From positions 1,116,001 to 1,180,000 of the forward strand of contig NZ_FNWJ01000001.1 in the NCBI RefSeq assembly GCF_900108055.1: 64,000 bases of DNA, in the 5' to 3' direction. Positions 46,437 to 58,371 of the stretch are shown here, piece after piece (position 1 is the first letter of the stretch; every line of letters starts with the position of its first letter). Source of the stretch: Thermoleophilum album. GTDB lineage: Bacteria > Actinomycetota > Thermoleophilia > Solirubrobacterales > Thermoleophilaceae. The notes under the pieces were generated by a model. The model was not told the origin of the DNA, searched no databases, and worked only from the letters and a program-made list of their open reading frames with translations. The translations under genes were made by a program, and so were the position numbers.

Positions 46437-48851
46437 ATGAGCGTTGCCTCCAAGACACTCGTGGTCGCCGAAAAGCCGTCGGTCGGACGGGACATTGCGC
46501 GTGCCCTCGACGACCGCTTCAAGGAGGCAAAAGACGGGACCCATCTAGTCGGCGAGCGCTACATCGTGACCTGGGCGATCGGTCATTTGGTGACCCTCGC
46601 CGAGCCCGACGCCTACGACGCGCGCCTCAAGCGCTGGCGCTTCAGCGATCTGCCGATCCTGCCCGAGCGCTTCAAGCTGGTGCCCAACGACGCCAAGTCG
46701 GAACGCCAGCTGCGCGTGATCCACGAGCTGATGCGCTCTGACGAAGTGGCCGAGATCGTCAACGCCTGCGACGCCGGGCGGGAGGGCGAGCTGATCTTCG
46801 CCTATGTCTACGAGACGGCGGGAGTCGACAAGCCCGTCAAGCGTCTGTGGCTGAGCTCGATGACGCGCCAGGCAATCCGAGAGGCCTTCGAGAACCTGCG
46901 TCCGGGCGAGGAGATGAAACGCCTCGAGGCCGCGGCACGCTCGCGCTCCGAAGCCGACTGGGTGGTTGGGATGAACGCCACGCGTGCCGCGACGATCCGT
47001 CTGCGGTCGGCGTTCGACGGGGCGGTCTCGCTCGGTCGGGTACAGACGCCGACGCTGGCGCTCGTCACCCGCCGCGAGCAGCAGATCCGCGACTTCAAGC
47101 CCGAGCCGTACTGGCTGATCGAAGCCGCCTTCGCGGCTTCGGGCGAGCGCACCTACCGGGGTCGTTACCTCGGCGGCAAGCGCATCCCGAAGGCCGAGGA
47201 GGCGCAGGCCATCGCCGACGCCGTGCGGGGTCGCCGGGGCACGATCACCAAGCTCGAGAAAAGCGAAGAGCGTGAGCGCCCGCAGCTCCTCTACGACCTC
47301 ACCTCGCTGCAACGGCACGCCAACGTGCTCTTCGGCTTTTCCGCGAGGCGCACGCTGAACGCGGCCCAGCGTCTTTACGAGGAGCACAAGGCGATCACCT
47401 ACCCCCGCACCAACTCGCGCTACCTGACTGGCGACCTGGTCTCCGAGATCAAGCCAACGGCGGAGCTGGTTGGTCGCAACCCGCAGTACGCGCGTGCCGC
47501 GGAGTACGTCCTCTCGCTCGAGCGGCTGCCGCTTCAGAGGGTCGTCGACGACACCAAGGTCGAGGACCACCACGCACTGATCCCCACGCGGGCCGAGCAC
47601 GACCTATCGAAGATGGGCCCGGACGAGCTGCGCATCTACGACCTCGTGGTGCGCCGCTTCCTAGCGGTCTTCCACCCCGACGCCGTCTATGAGCGCACGC
47701 GGGTGGAGACGACCGTCGAAGGTCACGTTTTCCGCACCAGCGGACGGCGGCTGGTAGAGGCCGGATGGAAGGCCGTCTACGGGGAGCAGGCGGAGGAGCC
47801 GGAGGGCGACGACGACAGCGGCGGCGACCAGCTACTGCCGAAGCTCGAGCGGGGCGAGGAGGTCGAGACACGCAAAGTCGACGTGCTCGAGAAGGAGACG
47901 CAGCCGCCGCGGCGCTACACCGACGCTTCGCTGCTCGCGGCGATGGAGACGGCCGGTCGCGAGATCGAGGATCCGGAGCTGCGCGAGGCGCTCAAGGACT
48001 CAGGGATCGGAACTCCCGCCACGCGCGCGGCGATCATCGAGCGCCTGATCGAGGTCGGCTACCTGGAGCGCGATGGGCGCACGCTGCGTCCGACCGAGAA
48101 AGGCATGCAGGTCATCCGCCTGCTCGGCGATCATCCGCTGACCTCGGCCGAGTTGACCGGCGAGTGGGAGCGGCGCCTAGCGCTGATCGAGCGCGGCCAA
48201 GACACGCGGCCGGCGTTCATGCGCGACATCGCCGACTTCACGACCAAGACCGTCGAACAGCTCGACCAGCTTAAGAACGTGCGGATCGAGCGGGCGCGGC
48301 TCGGACCGTGCCCGATCTGCGGACGCGAGATCGTCGAGAACCGACGCGGCTTCTCCTGCTGGTCGAAGGACGATCCCGGTTGCGGCTTCGTCATCTGGAA
48401 GCGCAAGGCGGGGAAGACGCTGTCGGCCGAGGTCGCCAAGGAGCTGATCGAGAGTCTGCGGGCGTCGATCGAGCGCGGTGACAACCCGCCCGTCGGGCGC
48501 ACCGAGAAGCCGGTGACTGGCTTCAAGGGGCGCTCCGGTCGGACCTTCCGCGCACGCCTGCGTCTTGAACGCGACGAGCAGGGTCGCTGGCGCGTCGAGT
48601 TCGACGAGCAGTGGGCGCAGCCGCGCGAGGGGGAGGACGAAGGGGCGGAAGTGCCCGCGAGCGGGGCGGCCACGAACGACGGCAGCGGCGCAGCGGCGGT
48701 CGCTGGCGAGAAGGAGCTCGCGGTTGACGGATCGAACGGAGCGAGTGCTTCGACCGACGGCGCAGAGCAGGCCGAGCCGGTCGCCGCCGGTGCCGCTGCA
48801 GCATCGCCGACGCGCCGGCGCGCACGCCGCACGCGTCCGCGCGCGAGCTAG
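46437..48851 (+). CDS. topB: type IA DNA topoisomerase (topoisomerase III-like)
   Basis: An 804-residue type IA topoisomerase. Seen: Toprim start V-V-A-E-K-P-S-V-G-R-D-I (residues 9-20) and acidic triad A-C-D-A-G-R-E-G-E-L, A-T-R-A-A-T-I-R, and the active-site Tyr322 in I-T-Y-P-R-T-N-S-R-Y. P-C-P-I-C-G and S-C-W...G-C-G-F are a zinc-like C4 cluster (about 622-645). After that comes a topo C-terminal repeat and a low-complexity, acidic/basic tail of about 110 residues. It relaxes and decatenates DNA by single-strand passage. The 3' end overlaps the phosphoesterase gene by four bases. Confidence 0.93.
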   Translation: MSVASKTLVVAEKPSVGRDIARALDDRFKEAKDGTHLVGERYIVTWAIGHLVTLAEPDAYDARLKRWRFSDLPILPERFKLVPNDAKSERQLRVIHELMRSDEVAEIVNACDAGREGELIFAYVYETAGVDKPVKRLWLSSMTRQAIREAFENLRPGEEMKRLEAAARSRSEADWVVGMNATRAATIRLRSAFDGAVSLGRVQTPTLALVTRREQQIRDFKPEPYWLIEAAFAASGERTYRGRYLGGKRIPKAEEAQAIADAVRGRRGTITKLEKSEERERPQLLYDLTSLQRHANVLFGFSARRTLNAAQRLYEEHKAITYPRTNSRYLTGDLVSEIKPTAELVGRNPQYARAAEYVLSLERLPLQRVVDDTKVEDHHALIPTRAEHDLSKMGPDELRIYDLVVRRFLAVFHPDAVYERTRVETTVEGHVFRTSGRRLVEAGWKAVYGEQAEEPEGDDDSGGDQLLPKLERGEEVETRKVDVLEKETQPPRRYTDASLLAAMETAGREIEDPELREALKDSGIGTPATRAAIIERLIEVGYLERDGRTLRPTEKGMQVIRLLGDHPLTSAELTGEWERRLALIERGQDTRPAFMRDIADFTTKTVEQLDQLKNVRIERARLGPCPICGREIVENRRGFSCWSKDDPGCGFVIWKRKAGKTLSAEVAKELIESLRASIERGDNPPVGRTEKPVTGFKGRSGRTFRARLRLERDEQGRWRVEFDEQWAQPREGEDEGAEVPASGAATNDGSGAAAVAGEKELAVDGSNGASASTDGAEQAEPVAAGAAAASPTRRRARRTRPRAS

Positions 48852-49976: not shown

Positions 49977-50654
49977 GTGCCGCGCTTCTGCGCCCACAAC
50001 CGTCTACTCGCGAACTGCCCGCTTTGCCGTACGGGCACGCCCCTCGACCCGTCGTTCGCCTTGCGCGAGCAAGCGGCGAAACGCTCGACGGGTGCCGTCA
50101 GCCGCGGGCGGGCCCGCTCGCCGGGGCGCCGCGCGCCGCGGCCGGGAGCGCCCTCACCCGGTGTGCGGGGACGGGCAGCGGTCGCCGGGCTCGAGGACGA
50201 GGCGGGTCAGCGCTACGAAGTGCGGCTCGAAGCGGTACCGGGTGGCGTTCGGCTCGCCGAGTGGAGCGGCGGCACGATCCGCCGCCGCGCACCGCGCCTA
50301 CCGGTGGCCGACCTGGTGCGTCTCGGCCAGGAGCTCGCCGCCACCGGCGCGCTCGCGGGGCCGCTCGGTGAGCGGCTGGCGGCGGCCAGCGGGCGGCTCG
50401 CCGCCCTCGCTGCGCAGCTAGCCGGCGCTCAAGCTGCCGGTGACGACGATCGCCGGGCGGTCGTCGGGGCGAGCGCAGGCCGCGCCGGCGACCTGCGCGA
50501 CGAGCTGCGGGTCGAGCTGTTCGAAGATGGGACGGCGCGCGTGGGCCGCTGGGTCGAGCTGCCTCACCGCGGCTTCCAGCTCCGCGAGGCGCCCGTTTTG
50601 ATGCCGATCGAGCGGCTGGTGGAAGCGCTAGAGCGGCTCGCCGACGATCGTTAG
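49977..50654 (+). CDS. zinc-knuckle protein preceding the AddB-AddA fusion
   Basis: A 225-residue protein with an N-terminal zinc-knuckle (C5-A-H-N-R-L-L-A-N-C-P-L-C, ligands C-x-H-x6-C-x2-C) and a long Arg/Gly/Pro-rich linker (residues 25-65). The rest is a soluble alpha/beta domain with the paired segments Y-E-V-R-L-E-A-V and E-L-R-V-E-L-F-E-D, which look like two copies of one strand motif. The family is not recognised. The stop is only 23 bases before the fusion gene, so they probably share an mRNA. A DNA-binding accessory of the helicase-nuclease is a possibility only. Confidence 0.65.
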   Translation: MPRFCAHNRLLANCPLCRTGTPLDPSFALREQAAKRSTGAVSRGRARSPGRRAPRPGAPSPGVRGRAAVAGLEDEAGQRYEVRLEAVPGGVRLAEWSGGTIRRRAPRLPVADLVRLGQELAATGALAGPLGERLAAASGRLAALAAQLAGAQAAGDDDRRAVVGASAGRAGDLRDELRVELFEDGTARVGRWVELPHRGFQLREAPVLMPIERLVEALERLADDR

Positions 50655-50677: not shown

Positions 50678-53600
50678 ATGTCGTTACGTTTGGTGCTCGG
50701 TCCCGCCAACGCCGGCAAGGCCGGGCGCGTGCTCGGTGCCCTGCGTTCCGCCGGCGACCGCGAGCGGATCGTCTGTCTGCCGCGGGCCGCGGATGTAGAG
50801 CTCGCGCGTCGCGAGCTCGCCGCCGCGGGTGCGGCGCTCGGTGTCCGCGCCCTCAACTTCCCGGGGCTCGTCGACTATCTCGCTGAGCGCCTGGAGGTGG
50901 CAGACGCACCGCTTTCGCAGCCAGCGCTCGCGCTCGTTACGCGGCGGGCGATCGAGAGCACCGAGCTCGTAGAGCTGGCTGCGGCGAGCAAGACCCCCGG
51001 CTTCGTGAGCGCGGTGGTCGAGGCGCTCGCCGAATTCGACCAAGCGGCTGCCGACCCCGAGCGTTTGGCGGAGCGCTCGCGGCGGGTCGCGGCGTCGGGG
51101 CCAGATAGCGCCGAGGGCCGCGAGCTGCGCGAGCTGCTAGCGATCCACCGGCGACGGCGCGAGTTCCTAGAGCGGATCGGGCGCGCGACCGACGAGCGGC
51201 GCGCCCGCCTCTGCGCCGAGCGTCTGTCCGAGCGACCGAAAGCGCTTTACAGCTCGGCGTCGCCGCCGCTTCTCGGTCTTTACGGCTACGACGACTTCAT
51301 GCCCGTCCAGCGCGACCTCCTGAAGCTGCTCAGCGAGCAGGCGGGCTGGGAGCTGATCGTCTCGCTCCCGTACGAGCGCCGCGGCGCCAACGGCCGCGAC
51401 GGCGTGCGGCCGGTGTTCGCTGCGGTCGCTGCGACCGTCGAGTTCCTGCGCCCGCAACGCCGCGAGCTTGTCGAGGAGTTACCCGCCTCGCCCCGCTACT
51501 ACCGCGGGAGCGGGGCGCGAGCGCTGCACCAGCTCGAACGCGGACTGTTCGAACCGGCGGCGGGGCCGATCGACCCTGGGGGGGCGATCGAGGCGCTGCG
51601 CGCCGGTGGTGGCGAAGCCGAGCGGGAGCTGGTTGCCGAGAGCGTCGCGCGGCTGATCGAAGAGGATGGTTTCGACCCGCGGGAGATCGCGGTCGTGGTG
51701 CCCACCCGCGGGCGCTCGCTGGAGGTCGGCGCAGCGCTGGCGGCGCTCGGTATCGAGCACACGGTGGCGGCGCGACTGCCGCTGCCGCACACGCCGCTCG
51801 GCGCGGGGCTCGTGGCGCTCGCGCGAACAGCGCTGTCGCCCGAGGCGACGGCGGCGGAAGAGATCCTGCGTTACCTGCGGCTGCCCGGGATCGCCGAGCC
51901 GGCGCGCGTCGATTACCTCGAGGAGCAACTGCGGCGTCGAGGGCTAACGACGGCGCGCGAGCTGCTCGAGCTGCTCGCCTCCGGAGGCGACCGCAGTCGT
52001 GGCCCGCGCGGCGGCGGGAGCGATCGTCTGCATCGCACGCTCGAGGGTCTGCGGGAAGCTGCGCGCCAGGGCGTCGACGCTTTTTCCGAGCGGCTCGACC
52101 GGGAGCTCGATCGCCTGCTCGCCGCACCGCTTCTTGGAGAGGCCGCAGCGGTCGCCGAAAAGCGCCCCGCCGGCACCGCCGCGCACCGGGCGACGCGTCG
52201 TCTCTTGCGCGAGCTTGCGTCGATCGCTGCCGCCGGCAACCCGCTCGGTCTCGAGCCCAGCGACGTCCTGTGGGCGCTCGAACGCGCGCTCGTCGAGTCG
52301 CCGGCGAGCGACCGCACAGGGCGGGTGACGGTGGCTTCCCCCGCCGAGGTGCGGGCGCGCCGTTGGCGGGCGGTCATCGTCACTGGCCTCGAGGCCGGCT
52401 CGTTCCCGCGTAGCGAACCGGTCGAGGGGGTGTTCGGGGACGCTCACCGCAAGCTGCTCGCCGACTCCTACGGGTTGCGCCTCGAGGCGGGCCCGCGCAC
52501 GATCGAGCGGGAGCGCTTCCTCTTCTACGCCTGCTGCTCGCGTGCGGAGGAGCGGCTCGTCGTCTCTTCGCGCGAGTGCGACGACGACGGACGCCCGCTC
52601 GAGCCATCCCCGTTCTTGCGCGAGCTGCGTCGACTGATGCCGAAGGTCCCGGTGCGTCGCCGCCGGATCGGCGAGCTACCGTCGCGGTCGCGGTCGCGGT
52701 CGCGGTCGCGGTCGCTGCTGTTGCCGCGGCCGCAACAGCGACCGCGACCGCCGGTCACCCGCCCGCTGCTGCCCTCAGAACTCACGAAGCCGGCGCTGCG
52801 GCTCCTGGTCGGCAACGACGAGTATGCCGTCGCCGATCTCGAGCGCTTCGCCCAATGTCGCGCGGCGTGGTTGATCGAGCGGGTGGTGCGGCCCCGGTCG
52901 ATCGATCCGGACACCGACGCCCTGGTCGCCGGCACGATCGTGCACGGGGCGCTGCGCAGGCTTTACAGCGAGCTGTTTACGCGCCCGGGCGAGGGTGTGC
53001 GTGAGTCTTCCAGGGAGCGCGTACGTAAGTGCCCCAGGGAGCAGGTACGCGCGGCGGTGCGTAGAGCCGCCCGCGAGCACCTCGGCGAGGGCGTCGACCT
53101 CGATTCGCCGCGCTTGCGTCCCTTGCTGGCGCGCGCAGCGCACGCGGTGACGCGCGCCCTGCGGCTCGACGCGAAGCTCCTGTGGGGAAAGGAGTTCGAA
53201 CCGCGGCCCGAGCTCCTCGAGGTCTCCTTCGGCGGAGACACACCACCGCTCGAGCTCGGGGGTATCAAGCTGCGTGGGCGCATCGACCGTATCGATGTGG
53301 CGCCCGCCGGCGACGGCCCTGCGCGGCGCGCCGTGATCGTCGACTACAAGACCGGCCGACCGGACAGCGGGGCCGCACATGGGAAGTGGCTGGAGCGCGG
53401 GGTTCTCCAGGCGGGCGTGTACATGCTGGCGGCGCGCGAGCTCCGCGGCGCCGACGGCGCGAAGTTGGCTCCCGAGGGCGGCATTTACGCCTTCCTCGGC
53501 AACGACCCCGGCGTGCGCGGCGCACTCTCCGACGGCGCCGCCGGTCCCGGCCTAAGCCGGCAAGCGAAACGCTCGCTCTGCCTCGACGCAGACGAGCTCG

Positions 53601-56600
53601 AGGAGTTGTTGGAAGCGGTCGAGGAGCGAGTGGCCGAGCTTGTAGGGGAGCTTTCCGGGGGGTCGACAGTTTCCATTGAGCCCAACGCGGAGCGCTGTTC
53701 GAGTCGTGGGACCTGTTCTTACCCTGGGTTCTGCCGCCTCGAGAAGCAGTCATTCGTGGCGGGCAGCGAGGGAGGCGCCGTGTACGCCGAGGCGGCCGCA
53801 GCGGGCCGCCACATCGAGGAGGCCGCAGCGGACCCGCCTAGCGCCGCGTCGGAGGCGGACGCGGACGAGGCGGGGTCCTCCGACGCTCAGGCGGCGCTCA
53901 CGCTCGACGAGGTCGTCGCCGCGCCGGCGGCGCTGAGCGCCGATGATCTAACCCCCGAGCAGCAGGCGGCGGTGGAGAACTCTGAAGACCCGCTCGTCGT
54001 CGTCGCCGCCGGCGCTGGGGTCGGCAAGACTCGTGTCCTCGTCGAGCGCTACGTCAAGCGGCTCCGCGACGAGCTTCAGCGCGAGCCCAGCGCAGCTGGC
54101 GCCGCCGTCGAGCGCCTGGTCGCGATCACCTTCACTGAGAAAGCAGCCGCGGAAATGCGCGAGCGCATCGCCGGTCGTCTACGCGCAATCGCCGACCGCG
54201 AGCGCGACCGGACGCTGGCGGACGCAGTCGAGGCGCTCGAGGGGGCGCCGATCTCGACCGTTCACTCGTTCTGCGCGCGCCTGTTGCGCAAGGAAGCCGT
54301 GCGGGCCGGTCTCGATCCGCACTTTCGCGTTCTCGATGAGCATGAGCAGCGGCGGGTGGCCGAGCGCGCGCTCGATCTTGCGCTCGAAAGGTTCACGGCG
54401 GCAAAGGGCGAAGTCGGCGACCGTGCCGCCGAGTTCATGGCCCGCTACGGTGCCGAGCAGCTGCGCTCCGACTTGCAAGCGGTGCACGCCGCGCTGCGTG
54501 CAGGTGCACTACCGCCGCCCGGCGCCTTCAAATCCTCCGACGCCTCCAACTCGTGGTGCCCGAAGTGCGGGCTCCCATTCTTCCCGGGTGCCGGCGCGCA
54601 GGCAGCGAACGGCGCCGATCGGACCTCCGAGCCCGGCGGGGGGTCGCCCGAAGCGGACGAAGCGCTCTTCTCGCGCGCCCTGCACGAGTTCGCGCACGCC
54701 TACGCCGACGAGCTGGAGCGCCGCTCGCTCTTGGACTTCGACGATCTCGAGCGGCGAGCGGTCGCTTTGCTCGAAGGCGATCCCGCGGTCGGCGCCCGTT
54801 GGCGGGGAGCGCTCAGCGAGATCCTCGTTGACGAGGCCCAGGATCTGAGTCCGCTGCAGCATCGCCTGCTTCGTGCGCTGCACGGTGGCGAGGGGTCCGC
54901 GGGTAGCGAAGGCGCCCCCGCTGGCGACGGCCCCGTGGGTGCCGACGGCGCCCCGCGGCCGACCCTTTTCCTGGTCGGCGACGAGCGGCAGTCGATCTAC
55001 GGCTTCCGGCACGCCGAGGTGGCGCTCTTCACCGAGACCACCGATTGCGCTGAAAAGGCCGGCGCCTTGATCGCCGTCGACACGAACTTCCGCAGCCATC
55101 CGGCGCTTCTCGACGTTGTGAACGGCACCTTTTCGCAGCTCTGGGGCGAGCCTCCGGAGCCCTCGCGCGAGAGTCGGCAGCGCCCACCGTGGGCGGCCCG
55201 TCACCGCGACCTCAAGCCCGGCCGCGAAGCCCAGCGCAACGACGAAGGTCCGCGCGTGGACCTGCTAGTGGTCGCCGCCCCCAGCAAGGCCCGTGCACGC
55301 TCGTCTGCGGGAGCGGGTGGTGGCGCACAAGCGGCCGCGTCGCTGACCGCGAGGGAGGCCCGGCAAGCGGAGGCCTGGCTGCTTGCCGACTACGTCTGGA
55401 AGCTTGCGCACGAAGGGGCGGAGAAGAATGGGGCCGAGAACCCCGGCGAGGTTCAGTGGGGCAGCTGGGCGCTGCTTCTGCGTAGCAGCAGCGACGCGGT
55501 GGTTTTCGAACGCGCCTTGGTGGCGCGGGGGATTCCCGTCTACAACGGCGCCGGCCGCGGCTTTTTTGCCCAGCTCCCCGTCCATGACGTGCTCAATTGG
55601 TTGCGGGTGCTCGCCAACCCGCGCGACGAGACCGCGCTGGCGGAGCTTTTGCTGTCACCGCTTGTGGGACTCGAGGCACAGAGCATCGCCTGGTTGGCCC
55701 TCGCGCCCGAGCTAGATCGGGACGGCGGGGGCGTGGGCGGCGAGTCGGCACGGCGGCCGCGCCGCGGGTCGCTTTGGGAGCGGTTACGCCGCGCGGCGGA
55801 ACTCGGATCGGAGGTCGCAACTGCGCTGCCCAAGGACCAACGCGAACTTCTCGAGTGGGTGGTCGCGACGGTGGAGGACGAGCGCGCCAGCCTCGACGAA
55901 CGACCCCTGGAGGAGCTGATCGAGCGGTGTCTCGAGCTCACCGGTTACCACAGCTATCTGTTGTCTTTGCCCGACGGGGTGCGCCGGCTCGCGAACGTGC
56001 GCAAGTTGCGTCTGATTGCGCGCGCCTTCGAGCGCGTCGAGGGTCGCGACCTGCGGGGCTTTTGCGACTCGGTACGCGAGCGGCAGATCGGCGGCGAGGC
56101 GCGCGAACCGGAGGCCGCGTTGGCGAGTGAGGGTGCCGGGTCGCTGCGGATTCTCACGATCCACCAGTCGAAGGGCCTCGAGTTCGACAACGTGATCGTC
56201 GCCGACCTCGGCCGCACACCGGCTCGCGGTCGCGACAGCGGTGTGCTGGTTGTATTCGATGGCGGTGGGCCGCGGCTTGCCACCCGCCTGCGGCCGGCGC
56301 CGACGCTCGCCACGGACAGCGACCGGGAATACATCGAGAGCGCAGATTGGAAGGACCTCCAGAAGGTGATCAAGGCGCGCGGCCAGGCGGAGGAGGAGCG
56401 CCTTGTCTACGTGGCGATGACGCGCGCCCGCGAGCGCTTGATCCTCAGCGGTCGCTGCGACCCGGAGCTGCTCGAGCGGCCAGCGGCGCCCAATCCGCGC
56501 GAGCGGTCCCGAACGAGCAGCGGGGCCAAGCAGCACTCATCGGGCGCGTCGGCTCTGGACGAGTACGCCGATCGCGCGAAGCTCCCGCTCGCCGACTGGT

Positions 56601-57742
56601 TGTTCCCGGTGCTTCTCACGAACGGCGACAAGGTGCGGGTGACGAAGTGGGGGCCCTCGACGCCGGCGAACGCACGGCAGGCGCGTGGAGAGACGGTGGC
56701 GGGCGAAACCGCAGCAAGAAGCGTTGCCGACGCGGCTGCTGCGCCTGCTGCGACCGTCGCCTCCCCGGAAGCGGCGCCGCCGCGGGGGTGCCCAGGCGCG
56801 CCTTCCGTGAGCGAGGGGCGGCGACATCGAGTGTGCCCGCAACCGATTACAGAGCGCCCGCGCCCGAAATCCGAGCTTGTGCCGCGCTTGAGCTACACGC
56901 AGCTCTCGCTGTACGAGCGCTGCGGCTACCGCTACTACCTGGAGCGGGTGGCTGGCCTCACCGGTCGACCCGAGGACGACCGCCCTTGTGGCGCGCCAGC
57001 CGGCCGGCCGTCGCCGGGTGGGGCGCAAACGGTTGGCGACCGCCAGGCCGATCTCTCGTACCTGCTGGCGCGGGGGCGAATCGTGCATGCCCTGCTGGAG
57101 CGGATCGACCTGCGAAAGCCCCGGCCGCCGAGCCGTGACGAGGTGACGGAGGCGCTCGCTGCCCTCGGCGTAAGTGAAGAGCAGCGGCGCTCTGACGCCA
57201 AACTCTTGTGCGACCAGATCGACCGCTGGTTGCGAAGTCCGCTTGCCCAGCGCCTCCGTGGTTTTCGCGAATTGCGACGCGAGTATCCGTTCCTGCTGGT
57301 TGAACCCCTCACAGTGACCGGTGTCTTCGACCTCTGGGCGCAAAGTGCGGATGGCACCGGGAAGGACACCGTCGTGGTCGTCGACTACAAAACCGACCGG
57401 CTCGATGCACGCGACCCGGCGCAGTTGGTAGCCGACCGCTACGCCTTGCAGCAAGAGATTTATGGACTGGCCGCTTTGTGCGCTGGTGCGCCTTCGGTGG
57501 AGGTCGCGCACGTGTTTCTCGAGCGCCCGGAAGATCCGGTTGTGAAGCGCTTCGAGCGCGCCCAGCAGGAGGCGCTCAAGAGGGCGCTACACGAGCGGGC
57601 GGCGGGAATCGCGGCGGGCCGCTTCGAGCCGACCGAAAACCCCCATTTGGGCATCTGCCAAGGGTGTCCTGGTCGCGCCGGACTTTGCAAATGGCCGCCG
57701 GAGCTGACCGGTCGCTCCACCCCCGCCGCGACCACGGCTTAG
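50678..57742 (+). CDS. AddB-AddA fused helicase-nuclease, 2354 residues
   Basis: One chain containing what are normally two subunits. Half 1 (1 to about 1025) is AddB-like: a degenerate Walker A G-P-A-N-A-G-K-A, L-Y-G-Y-D-D-F, P-L-P-H-T-P-L-G, R-E-R-F-L-F-Y-A-C-C-S-R-A, then a PD-(D/E)XK nuclease with G-T-I-V-H-G, D870, D889-Y-K891, and cysteines C727, C1007, C1013, C1019. A low-complexity linker (about 1030-1080) follows. Half 2 is AddA-like: A-G-A-G-V-G-K-T (K1117), V-D-E-A-Q-D (D1385), G-D-E-R-Q-S-I-Y-G-F, H-Q-S-K-G-L-E-F, V-A-M-T-R-A-R, and a second nuclease with H, D2218, D2236-Y-K2238 and cysteines C2082, C2327, C2330, C2337. It should process DNA ends for recombination, like AddAB/AdnAB. 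Confidence 0.92.
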   Translation: MSLRLVLGPANAGKAGRVLGALRSAGDRERIVCLPRAADVELARRELAAAGAALGVRALNFPGLVDYLAERLEVADAPLSQPALALVTRRAIESTELVELAAASKTPGFVSAVVEALAEFDQAAADPERLAERSRRVAASGPDSAEGRELRELLAIHRRRREFLERIGRATDERRARLCAERLSERPKALYSSASPPLLGLYGYDDFMPVQRDLLKLLSEQAGWELIVSLPYERRGANGRDGVRPVFAAVAATVEFLRPQRRELVEELPASPRYYRGSGARALHQLERGLFEPAAGPIDPGGAIEALRAGGGEAERELVAESVARLIEEDGFDPREIAVVVPTRGRSLEVGAALAALGIEHTVAARLPLPHTPLGAGLVALARTALSPEATAAEEILRYLRLPGIAEPARVDYLEEQLRRRGLTTARELLELLASGGDRSRGPRGGGSDRLHRTLEGLREAARQGVDAFSERLDRELDRLLAAPLLGEAAAVAEKRPAGTAAHRATRRLLRELASIAAAGNPLGLEPSDVLWALERALVESPASDRTGRVTVASPAEVRARRWRAVIVTGLEAGSFPRSEPVEGVFGDAHRKLLADSYGLRLEAGPRTIERERFLFYACCSRAEERLVVSSRECDDDGRPLEPSPFLRELRRLMPKVPVRRRRIGELPSRSRSRSRSRSLLLPRPQQRPRPPVTRPLLPSELTKPALRLLVGNDEYAVADLERFAQCRAAWLIERVVRPRSIDPDTDALVAGTIVHGALRRLYSELFTRPGEGVRESSRERVRKCPREQVRAAVRRAAREHLGEGVDLDSPRLRPLLARAAHAVTRALRLDAKLLWGKEFEPRPELLEVSFGGDTPPLELGGIKLRGRIDRIDVAPAGDGPARRAVIVDYKTGRPDSGAAHGKWLERGVLQAGVYMLAARELRGADGAKLAPEGGIYAFLGNDPGVRGALSDGAAGPGLSRQAKRSLCLDADELEELLEAVEERVAELVGELSGGSTVSIEPNAERCSSRGTCSYPGFCRLEKQSFVAGSEGGAVYAEAAAAGRHIEEAAADPPSAASEADADEAGSSDAQAALTLDEVVAAPAALSADDLTPEQQAAVENSEDPLVVVAAGAGVGKTRVLVERYVKRLRDELQREPSAAGAAVERLVAITFTEKAAAEMRERIAGRLRAIADRERDRTLADAVEALEGAPISTVHSFCARLLRKEAVRAGLDPHFRVLDEHEQRRVAERALDLALERFTAAKGEVGDRAAEFMARYGAEQLRSDLQAVHAALRAGALPPPGAFKSSDASNSWCPKCGLPFFPGAGAQAANGADRTSEPGGGSPEADEALFSRALHEFAHAYADELERRSLLDFDDLERRAVALLEGDPAVGARWRGALSEILVDEAQDLSPLQHRLLRALHGGEGSAGSEGAPAGDGPVGADGAPRPTLFLVGDERQSIYGFRHAEVALFTETTDCAEKAGALIAVDTNFRSHPALLDVVNGTFSQLWGEPPEPSRESRQRPPWAARHRDLKPGREAQRNDEGPRVDLLVVAAPSKARARSSAGAGGGAQAAASLTAREARQAEAWLLADYVWKLAHEGAEKNGAENPGEVQWGSWALLLRSSSDAVVFERALVARGIPVYNGAGRGFFAQLPVHDVLNWLRVLANPRDETALAELLLSPLVGLEAQSIAWLALAPELDRDGGGVGGESARRPRRGSLWERLRRAAELGSEVATALPKDQRELLEWVVATVEDERASLDERPLEELIERCLELTGYHSYLLSLPDGVRRLANVRKLRLIARAFERVEGRDLRGFCDSVRERQIGGEAREPEAALASEGAGSLRILTIHQSKGLEFDNVIVADLGRTPARGRDSGVLVVFDGGGPRLATRLRPAPTLATDSDREYIESADWKDLQKVIKARGQAEEERLVYVAMTRARERLILSGRCDPELLERPAAPNPRERSRTSSGAKQHSSGASALDEYADRAKLPLADWLFPVLLTNGDKVRVTKWGPSTPANARQARGETVAGETAARSVADAAAAPAATVASPEAAPPRGCPGAPSVSEGRRHRVCPQPITERPRPKSELVPRLSYTQLSLYERCGYRYYLERVAGLTGRPEDDRPCGAPAGRPSPGGAQTVGDRQADLSYLLARGRIVHALLERIDLRKPRPPSRDEVTEALAALGVSEEQRRSDAKLLCDQIDRWLRSPLAQRLRGFRELRREYPFLLVEPLTVTGVFDLWAQSADGTGKDTVVVVDYKTDRLDARDPAQLVADRYALQQEIYGLAALCAGAPSVEVAHVFLERPEDPVVKRFERAQQEALKRALHERAAGIAAGRFEPTENPHLGICQGCPGRAGLCKWPPELTGRSTPAATTA
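52681..52750 (+). repeat. hexamer repeat and hairpin inside the AddB half
   Basis: Six copies of GTCGCG (last GTCGCT) at 52681-52716 encode Ser-Arg dipeptides. They merge into an inverted repeat: CGGTCGCGGTCGCTG (52703-52717) pairs perfectly with CAGCGACCGCGACCG (52736-52750), with a smaller TTGC/GCAA stem inside. It falls in the linker between the AddB motor and its nuclease domain, where length change is tolerated because the unit is six bases. Confidence 0.8.
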
Positions 57743-57772: not shown

Positions 57773-57819
57773 GTTGACAAATGTGCCGGCATGGTCGACG
57801 GTGCCGGCACATGGTCAAC
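57773..57819. repeat. large interrupted inverted repeat after the fusion gene
   Basis: GTTGAC (57773-57778) and ATGTGCCGGCA (57781-57791) pair with TGCCGGCACAT (57802-57812) and GTCAAC (57814-57819). The ten-base centre includes GTCGAC. In total 17 base pairs form. The shorter unit GTGCCGGC occurs three times in a row here. It may be a protein-binding site or an RNA structure ahead of the gene at 57916. Confidence 0.75.
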
Positions 57820-57821
57820 GG

Positions 57822-57842
57822 TGCCGGCGGCGGCAACTTTTT
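57822..57842 (+). terminator. weak intrinsic terminator downstream of the fusion gene
   Basis: TGCCG (57822-57826) pairs with CGGCA (57831-57835) over a four-base loop, followed by AC and five T. The stem is short, but it directly follows the larger inverted repeat, which could help. It would end the mRNA that starts upstream of the zinc-knuckle gene. Confidence 0.45.
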
Positions 57843-57915
57843 CCGTCGGCAGCCGTCCATATCTTCCGGGGCGACGCGCAGGCTCGAAGGACCGACACGG
57901 AAGACCAGGGACGAG

Positions 57916-58371
57916 ATGCCGCTTTGCTTTATCGAGCCAAGGGATGCAATCAGGGTGATCGCCGACAGCGTTGGTCGCGAGGCGCGCAGACAGCTTCTTG
58001 ATGGGATCATCCGCGCCTGGGTCGACGAGATCCCCGAGGACGAGCTCGAGCACCACTACGCGCGCGCTCTGGAGGAGCTCGATGAGGAGAACCTGTCGAT
58101 GCTCGCTGCGTGGCACGCCGGCTTCGACGTTGGGCGTCCAGTAGCCAACAAGGATTTCTTGGTGCGCGCCTTCCCGCGGCTTGGCCGTCATCGGCGAGAG
58201 GCCCTGCGCATCGCTGCTGTGTTCCGCGGCGAGGAGGCTCTCGACTCTGGTGCTAGCGAGCGCGCGGCGCTGGAGGCGGTGCTGCCGCGTCTTTCCGATG
58301 AGCGGCTGCTCGAGCTGACCTGCGAGGCGCTCGAGATCTACTGCTGGGACCGTCTCGGGGCCGACAACTAG
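57916..58371 (+). CDS. hypothetical protein, acidic and helical
   Basis: A 151-residue soluble protein, mostly helices (E-A-R-R-Q-L-L-D-G-I-I-R-A-W-V-D-E-I-P-E-D, then E-H-H-Y-A-R-A-L-E-E-L-D-E-E-N). Features: W-H-A-G-F-D-V-G-R-P-V-A-N-K-D-F and a C-terminal C-E-A-L-E-I-Y-C-W. No known domain, signal or membrane segment. The ATG at 57916 has AGGGA before it; the longer in-frame start at 57781 lies inside the inverted repeat. It may be under its own promoter. Function not proposed. Confidence 0.7.
   Translation: MPLCFIEPRDAIRVIADSVGREARRQLLDGIIRAWVDEIPEDELEHHYARALEELDEENLSMLAAWHAGFDVGRPVANKDFLVRAFPRLGRHRREALRIAAVFRGEEALDSGASERAALEAVLPRLSDERLLELTCEALEIYCWDRLGADN

What the first reader, a model, noticed from the sequence alone, without database searches (positions are those of the whole stretch)
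50678..57742. AddB and AddA fused into one 2354-residue helicase-nuclease with two Fe-S-type nuclease domains
Seen: AddB-like half (degenerate Walker A, AddB motifs, PD-(D/E)XK with H, D870, D889-Y-K891) followed by AddA-like half (all UvrD motifs, second nuclease). Each nuclease has a lone upstream Cys and a C-terminal cluster: C727 with C1007-x5-C1013-x5-C1019, and C2082 with C2327-x2-C2330-x6-C2337. In B. subtilis AddAB, only AddB carries the Fe-S staple (established knowledge). Two clusters in one chain, and the fusion itself, would fix the 1:1 stoichiometry and allow coordinated end processing. I cannot say how widespread this architecture is.
Basis: partly seen in the sequence, partly recalled or inferred. 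Interest (0 to 1): 0.8.

Follow-up and report, generated by a model that had tools for sequence, protein, structure and literature searches.

The report
Natural single-chain AddB–AddA DNA-break enzyme
One small genus of actinobacteria (order Solirubrobacterales) has joined the two halves of the ordinary DNA-break-processing enzyme AddAB into one giant protein; the enzyme type is known, but I found no description of this natural fusion or of its paired metal-cluster motifs.

Summary
In detail: 50678-57742 is one intact ORF of 2354 residues, an AddB half (1-1019), a ~70-residue linker and an AddA half (1091-2354), with both nuclease active sites and both four-Cys sets at the stated positions. 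It is not a frameshift or read-error join. A second species of the same genus, assembled as one contig, has the same fusion (2508 aa, 52% identical), and in a third the open frame crosses the junction. In 53 distinct loci outside this genus a stop codon separates adjacent addB and addA, so the fusion looks like one event confined to this genus, as far as I could search. Best matches are B. subtilis AddB and AddA, well ahead of AdnAB and RecBCD; no other addA or addB was found in the genome. The two Fe-S-type Cys sets are real motifs but not a result of the fusion: both are conserved in the separate AddB and AddA of nearly the whole order. The unusual part is AddA, whose C-terminal Cys cluster B. 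subtilis AddA has no room for. Best reading: a covalently linked AddAB working by the ordinary AddAB mechanism. New variant of a known kind, moderate interest.

The parts
50678..57742 (+). fused addBA gene, 2354 aa
   Evidence: conserved as a fusion in G030 and G029
50678..53734 (+). AddB half, residues 1-1019 (inactivated helicase fold + nuclease)
   Evidence: profile vs B. subtilis AddB 3u44_B E=2e-49; fold match 3u44_B E=1.1e-38
50699..50722 (+). degenerate Walker A GPANAGKA of the AddB half, residues 8-15
   Evidence: same sequence order-wide
52829..53737 (+). AddB-type PD-(D/E)XK nuclease, residues 718-1020; H756, D870, D889-Y-K891
   Evidence: Pfam PDDEXK_1; catalytic residues 58/58
52856..52858 (+). 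C727, upstream Cys of the AddB iron-staple motif
   Evidence: 58/58 conserved
53696..53734 (+). C1007-x5-C1013-x5-C1019, C-terminal Cys cluster of the AddB half
   Evidence: 39/58, 58/58, 53/58 at the aligned columns
53735..53947 (+). interdomain linker, residues 1020-1090; low model confidence over the part modelled (1020-1049), fast evolving, in frame
53948..56467 (+). AddA UvrD-type motor, residues 1091-1930, SF1 motifs present
   Evidence: G1116, K1117, T1118, D1385, E1386 58/58
54554..54577 (+). WCPKCGLP insertion (C1294, C1297) in the AddA motor, kept in G030 and not seen in separate AddA proteins
56885..57697 (+). AddA-type PD-(D/E)XK nuclease, residues 2070-2340; H2137, D2218, D2236-Y-K2238
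   Evidence: best fold match B. subtilis AddA
56921..56923 (+). C2082, upstream Cys of the AddA iron-staple motif
   Evidence: 50/51 ungapped
57656..57688 (+). C2327-x2-C2330-x6-C2337, C-terminal Cys cluster of the AddA half
   Evidence: 48-50 of 50 ungapped
49977..50654 (+). conserved small upstream gene (MPRFCAHNRLLANCPLCR...), no known family
   Evidence: syntenic in G030 and many family members; no Pfam/NCBIfam hit
46437..48851 (+). topB (DNA topoisomerase III), near the same locus in relatives
57781..58371 (+). conserved downstream ORF, 81% identical in G030

Best explanation
The gene encodes a natural single-chain AddAB: AddB (N-terminal) joined by a ~70-residue flexible linker to AddA (C-terminal). 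Shown by sequence: one ORF, AddB and AddA homology, intact AddA motor motifs, both PD-(D/E)XK active sites and a four-Cys iron-staple signature in each nuclease; the fusion is shared by three genomes of one genus and was not seen elsewhere in the order. Inferred from AddAB knowledge: the AddA motor unwinds a broken DNA end in the 3'-to-5' direction, the AddA nuclease cuts the 3' strand, the AddB nuclease cuts the 5' strand, and the AddB helicase-like domain scans for a Chi-like sequence, leaving a 3' overhang for RecA. The fusion most likely arose once by loss of the addB stop codon in an addB-addA operon whose products already formed a 1:1 complex, and mainly fixes stoichiometry and assembly in cis rather than adding an activity (inference).
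For: Single ORF and domains. Same fusion at 52% identity in G030; G029 frame crosses the junction. G029 vs G030 linker: 51 codons, 10 substitutions, no stop or indel; no conserved internal start with a Shine-Dalgarno (G029 linker has no start codon, G030 one ATG without SD). No other addA/addB in the genome. AddB half vs 3u44_B E=2e-49, against 7e-20 for AdnA; fold E=1e-38 against 8e-25. AddA half vs 3u44_A E=5e-52, against 1e-18 for AdnB. Relatives: a stop between addB and addA in 53 distinct loci; AddB frames at most ~1300 aa in other class genomes. The fused genus is one clade, support 100, in the AddB and AddA trees. Roles of the AddAB domains: PMC4824097.
Against: No expression, protein or activity data. 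Post-translational cleavage in the linker is not excluded. In G000 alone a GTG at residue 1035 follows GGGAGG, so some separate AddA could be made there. Sequence identity to characterised AddAB is low. Fe-S content is inferred from motifs only.
Confidence: 0.82

Rival explanations
1. Assembly or sequencing error that removed a stop or frameshift between two adjacent genes.
For: Relatives outside the genus have two adjacent genes, mostly in different frames.
Against: Same fusion in the one-contig genome G030 and open frame across the junction in G029; an in-frame linker of ~50-70 residues with coding GC pattern.
Confidence: 0.02
2. The fused chain is a precursor, or is accompanied by internal initiation, so that AddB and AddA act as a normal heterodimer after cleavage or separate translation.
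For: The linker is fast evolving (dN/dS about 2.3, on only 10 changes) and modelled with low confidence; G000 has a GTG with SD-like GGGAGG at residue 1035.
Against: No start codon in the G029 linker and none with SD in G030. Protease sites were not looked for.
Confidence: 0.13
3. An AdnAB- or RecBCD-type enzyme rather than AddAB.
For: Two nuclease domains, actinobacterial host; the AdnA nuclease is a close fold match of the AddA nuclease (Z 15.1 against 15.6).
Against: The N-terminal half matches AddB far better than AdnA or RecC; the C-terminal half matches AddA far better than AdnB or RecB.
Confidence: 0.03

Closest known systems
B. subtilis AddAB helicase-nuclease (PDB 3U44, 3U4Q, 4CEJ)
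   Same: Same two subunits, one SF1A motor in AddA, inactivated helicase fold in AddB, two nucleases, four-Cys iron staple in AddB (PMC4824097, PMC7430649)
   Different: Two polypeptides there, one here; AddA here has an extra C-terminal segment with a second four-Cys set, for which the 1232-residue B. subtilis AddA has no room
Separate addB-addA gene pairs of Solirubrobacterales and class relatives
   Same: Gene order, synteny, domains, active sites and both Cys sets
   Different: A stop codon separates addB and addA, commonly overlapping or abutting the addA start
AdnAB of mycobacteria
   Same: Two helicase-like halves and two nucleases; the AdnA nuclease aligns with the AddA nuclease through its C-terminal Cys region
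   Different: Each AdnAB subunit has a UvrD-like motor domain (PMC13309787); much weaker sequence and fold match
Iron-staple nucleases Cas4, Dna2, Bad
   Same: Four-Cys pattern spanning a RecB-family nuclease (PMC7430649)
   Different: Different helicase partner, or none

Membership tests
AddAB | AddA: SF1A UvrD-type motor with intact motifs plus C-terminal RecB-family nuclease | tested here: met
AddAB | AddB: helicase fold lacking motor motifs, plus nuclease | tested here: met
   ADDB_N hit; profile and fold match to 3u44_B; Walker A GPANAGKA lacks the T/S
AddAB | Four-Cys iron staple in the AddB nuclease | tested here: met
   C727, C1007, C1013, C1019 present; motif only, no cluster shown
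AddAB | NCBIfam equivalog cut-offs for addA/addB (Gram-positive models) | tested here: not met
   TIGR02785 316 bits against cut-off 708, TIGR02773 71 against 904. The models are named for Gram-positive AddA/AddB, so this excludes that subfamily, not the wider family
AddAB | Two separate polypeptides | tested here: not met
   One ORF here and in G030; hence 'single-chain variant of AddAB', not canonical AddAB
AddAB | ATP-dependent dsDNA exonuclease and Chi response | not testable with these tools
   needs biochemistry
AdnAB | Halves closest to AdnA and AdnB, each with a UvrD-like motor | tested here: not met
Iron-staple nuclease (AddA half) | Four conserved Cys spanning the nuclease domain | tested here: met
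   C2082, C2327, C2330, C2337 conserved
Iron-staple nuclease (AddA half) | The four Cys meet in space and bind Fe-S | tested here: inconclusive
   Fold alignment runs through the Cys region against AdnA, Cas4, Dna2 and AddB, but no coordinates were available for distances, and Fe-S binding cannot be tested here

The most novel reading that the evidence does not exclude
A single-chain AddBA in which covalent linkage changes behaviour (obligate cis assembly, or a domain-swapped dimer with two motors), as part of a genus-specific reworking of break repair: the same genus also carries an order-wide second UvrD-PDDEXK protein whose motor motifs have been lost, and its AddBA lies on a long branch.
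Probability: 0.1. Interest if true: 0.55.

Novelty: new variant of a known kind. Interest (0 to 1): 0.42.

Why it matters
A natural one-chain AddAB gives a ready-made construct of fixed stoichiometry for single-molecule and structural work on DNA-end resection. It also points to AddA proteins with a predicted iron staple across an entire order, which can be tested to learn whether an Fe-S cluster in the 3'-strand nuclease alters the Chi-regulated switch; in B. subtilis the cluster is known in AddB.

Tried and rejected
Frameshift/read-error join: rejected by G030 and G029. AdnAB/RecBCD identity: rejected. G017 looked fused from the tool's frame length (2189 aa), but its sequence has a TGA between the two in-frame genes. 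Fe-S pair as a product of fusion: rejected. Internal re-initiation: not conserved. Full-length protein searches of class and relatives failed on the server, so shorter pieces were used. A first genome-contig scan with the single protein found nothing. No plasmid record covers 80% of the chain. No paper on a natural AddA-AddB fusion in the held library; the 2009 AddAB distribution paper is not held. The first Cys-conservation script read gapped rows and stopped; it was redone, and one search had used the same gapped query for its percentages, though its ORF coordinates and stop positions do not depend on that. Acceleration after fusion: topB is 94% identical between G000 and G030 while AddB/AddA are 50/54%, below all six unfused pairs with topB 87-89% (58-67% and 58-65%); but other neighbours range from 52 to 94%, so this is only suggestive.

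Full report
Observation. The ORF at 50678-57742 (+) is real and uninterrupted, 2354 residues. Pfam marks two PDDEXK_1 nuclease stretches, one UvrD helicase and ADDB_N. NCBIfam gives matches below the cut-offs to addA and addB equivalogs. The genome (2.2 Mb, 5 contigs, 96% complete) shows no other AddA- or AddB-type gene: other hits are a 752-aa UvrD/PcrA-like frame, a UvrD-Cas4-type protein, and a further UvrD-PDDEXK protein.

Not an artefact. Congener G030, whose genome is one contig, encodes the same architecture in one 2508-residue ORF, 52% identical overall. G029, a near relative of G030, is fragmented, but its frame runs from AddB through the linker into the AddA motif I region before the contig ends. 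GC by codon position is that of coding sequence through the linker. Between G029 and G030 the linker has about 8.5 nonsynonymous and 1.5 synonymous changes in 51 codons, with no stop and no indel: a little-constrained tether that is kept in frame. No start codon with a Shine-Dalgarno is conserved in the linker; the GTG at residue 1035 of G000 is private to it. The part of the linker included in the model (residues 1020-1049) is mostly under pLDDT 50.

How widespread. In the family, order and class searches only the window's genus shows one frame across both halves. Reading the junctions directly, 53 distinct loci outside the genus have a stop between addB and addA, mostly with addA in another frame and starting at or near the addB TGA; two (L029, L090) are in the same frame, which shows how stop loss could create a fusion (inference). 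A thin phylum-wide sample showed no further fusion. Other phyla were not searched, apart from plasmids. The AddB tree places the three fused sequences, and the AddA tree the two complete ones, as one clade with full support on a long stem. The named relatives are Solirubrobacterales / Solirubrobacteraceae MAGs. Synteny (topB, small Cys-rich ORF, addBA, conserved ORF) is shared with G030 and, in part, with many unfused relatives.

Which enzyme. A profile of the AddB half hits B. subtilis AddB at E=2e-49 over 860 profile positions, against 7e-20 for AdnA; the predicted fold does likewise (model pLDDT 78, pTM 0.60). The AddA half hits B. subtilis AddA at 5e-52 against 1e-18 for AdnB. So both halves are of AddAB type. 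By established AddAB biology the AddA nuclease cuts the 3' strand, the AddB nuclease the 5' strand, and the AddB helicase-like domain reads Chi (PMC4824097). The catalytic residues of both nucleases and the AddA motor motifs are intact, so I predict full activity.

Iron-sulphur motifs. The iron staple is defined as four conserved Cys spanning a RecB-family nuclease, first shown in AddB (PMC7430649). Both nucleases here meet that signature. In the 58-sequence alignments, almost all of separate proteins, AddB C727 and C1013 are invariant and C1019 is in 53; C1007 is in 39 at that column, with shifted or missing Cys in the rest. In AddA, C2082 and the C-x2-C-x6-C cluster are present in almost every sequence that reaches that region. 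Exceptions are three genomes of one genus (g32), where AddA lacks all four Cys and AddB lacks C1007 and C1019, and two genomes of another family of the phylum (f28), whose AddA shows no such cluster. So two Cys sets are the likely ancestral state of this order, not a consequence of the fusion. B. subtilis AddA ends 24 residues after the last aligned nuclease position, and the fold alignment to it stops at model residue 244; the alignments to AdnA, Cas4, Dna2 and AddB run on to 294-308, through the Cys cluster. This supports a staple-like position but does not measure distances.

Verdict. A genuine, genus-specific natural fusion of a known enzyme, most likely working like AddAB. The consequence for stoichiometry is trivially true if the chain is not cleaved; any effect on end processing is untested. 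I found no description of such a fusion in the held open-access library, which is a limited search.

Noticed in passing
L006:2644-5721 (-), i.e. G000:C1 about 767643-770720; relatives in L110-L114: A second single-chain UvrD + PDDEXK protein (1025 aa, four-Cys nuclease) conserved across the order. Motor motifs are intact in G020 but lost in G000 and G030 (Walker A GAGRTT/GSGRTT, DQYE/DDYE, no motif VI), so in the genus with the fused AddBA it looks like a pseudo-helicase nuclease.
   Followed up: partly
L007:694-3549 (+), G000:C2 about 150193-153048: UvrD-Cas4-type helicase-nuclease (951 aa) directly upstream of a DNA methyltransferase, like the UvrD-Cas4 / type III restriction-modification contexts reported in PMC5704561.
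   Followed up: partly
49977-50654: Small conserved gene upstream of addB with an N-terminal CxHNRLLANCPLCR motif, syntenic with addB-addA in G030 and many family members, no Pfam or NCBIfam match.
   Followed up: partly
54554-54577: WCPKCGLP (CxxC) insertion in the AddA motor, kept in the fused homologue G030 and not seen in separate AddA proteins.
   Followed up: partly
L100, L101, L103 (genus g32 of the order): AddA nuclease keeps H...D...D-W-K but lacks all four Cys, and AddB lacks two of its four: apparent parallel loss of both iron-staple motifs.
   Followed up: partly
46437-48851: topB is 94% identical between G000 and G030 while the nearby AddBA is 52%, a marked rate contrast.
   Followed up: partly
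61661-63862: Two adjacent Laminin_G_3 domain proteins on the minus strand, 83-92% identical in G030.
   Followed up: no
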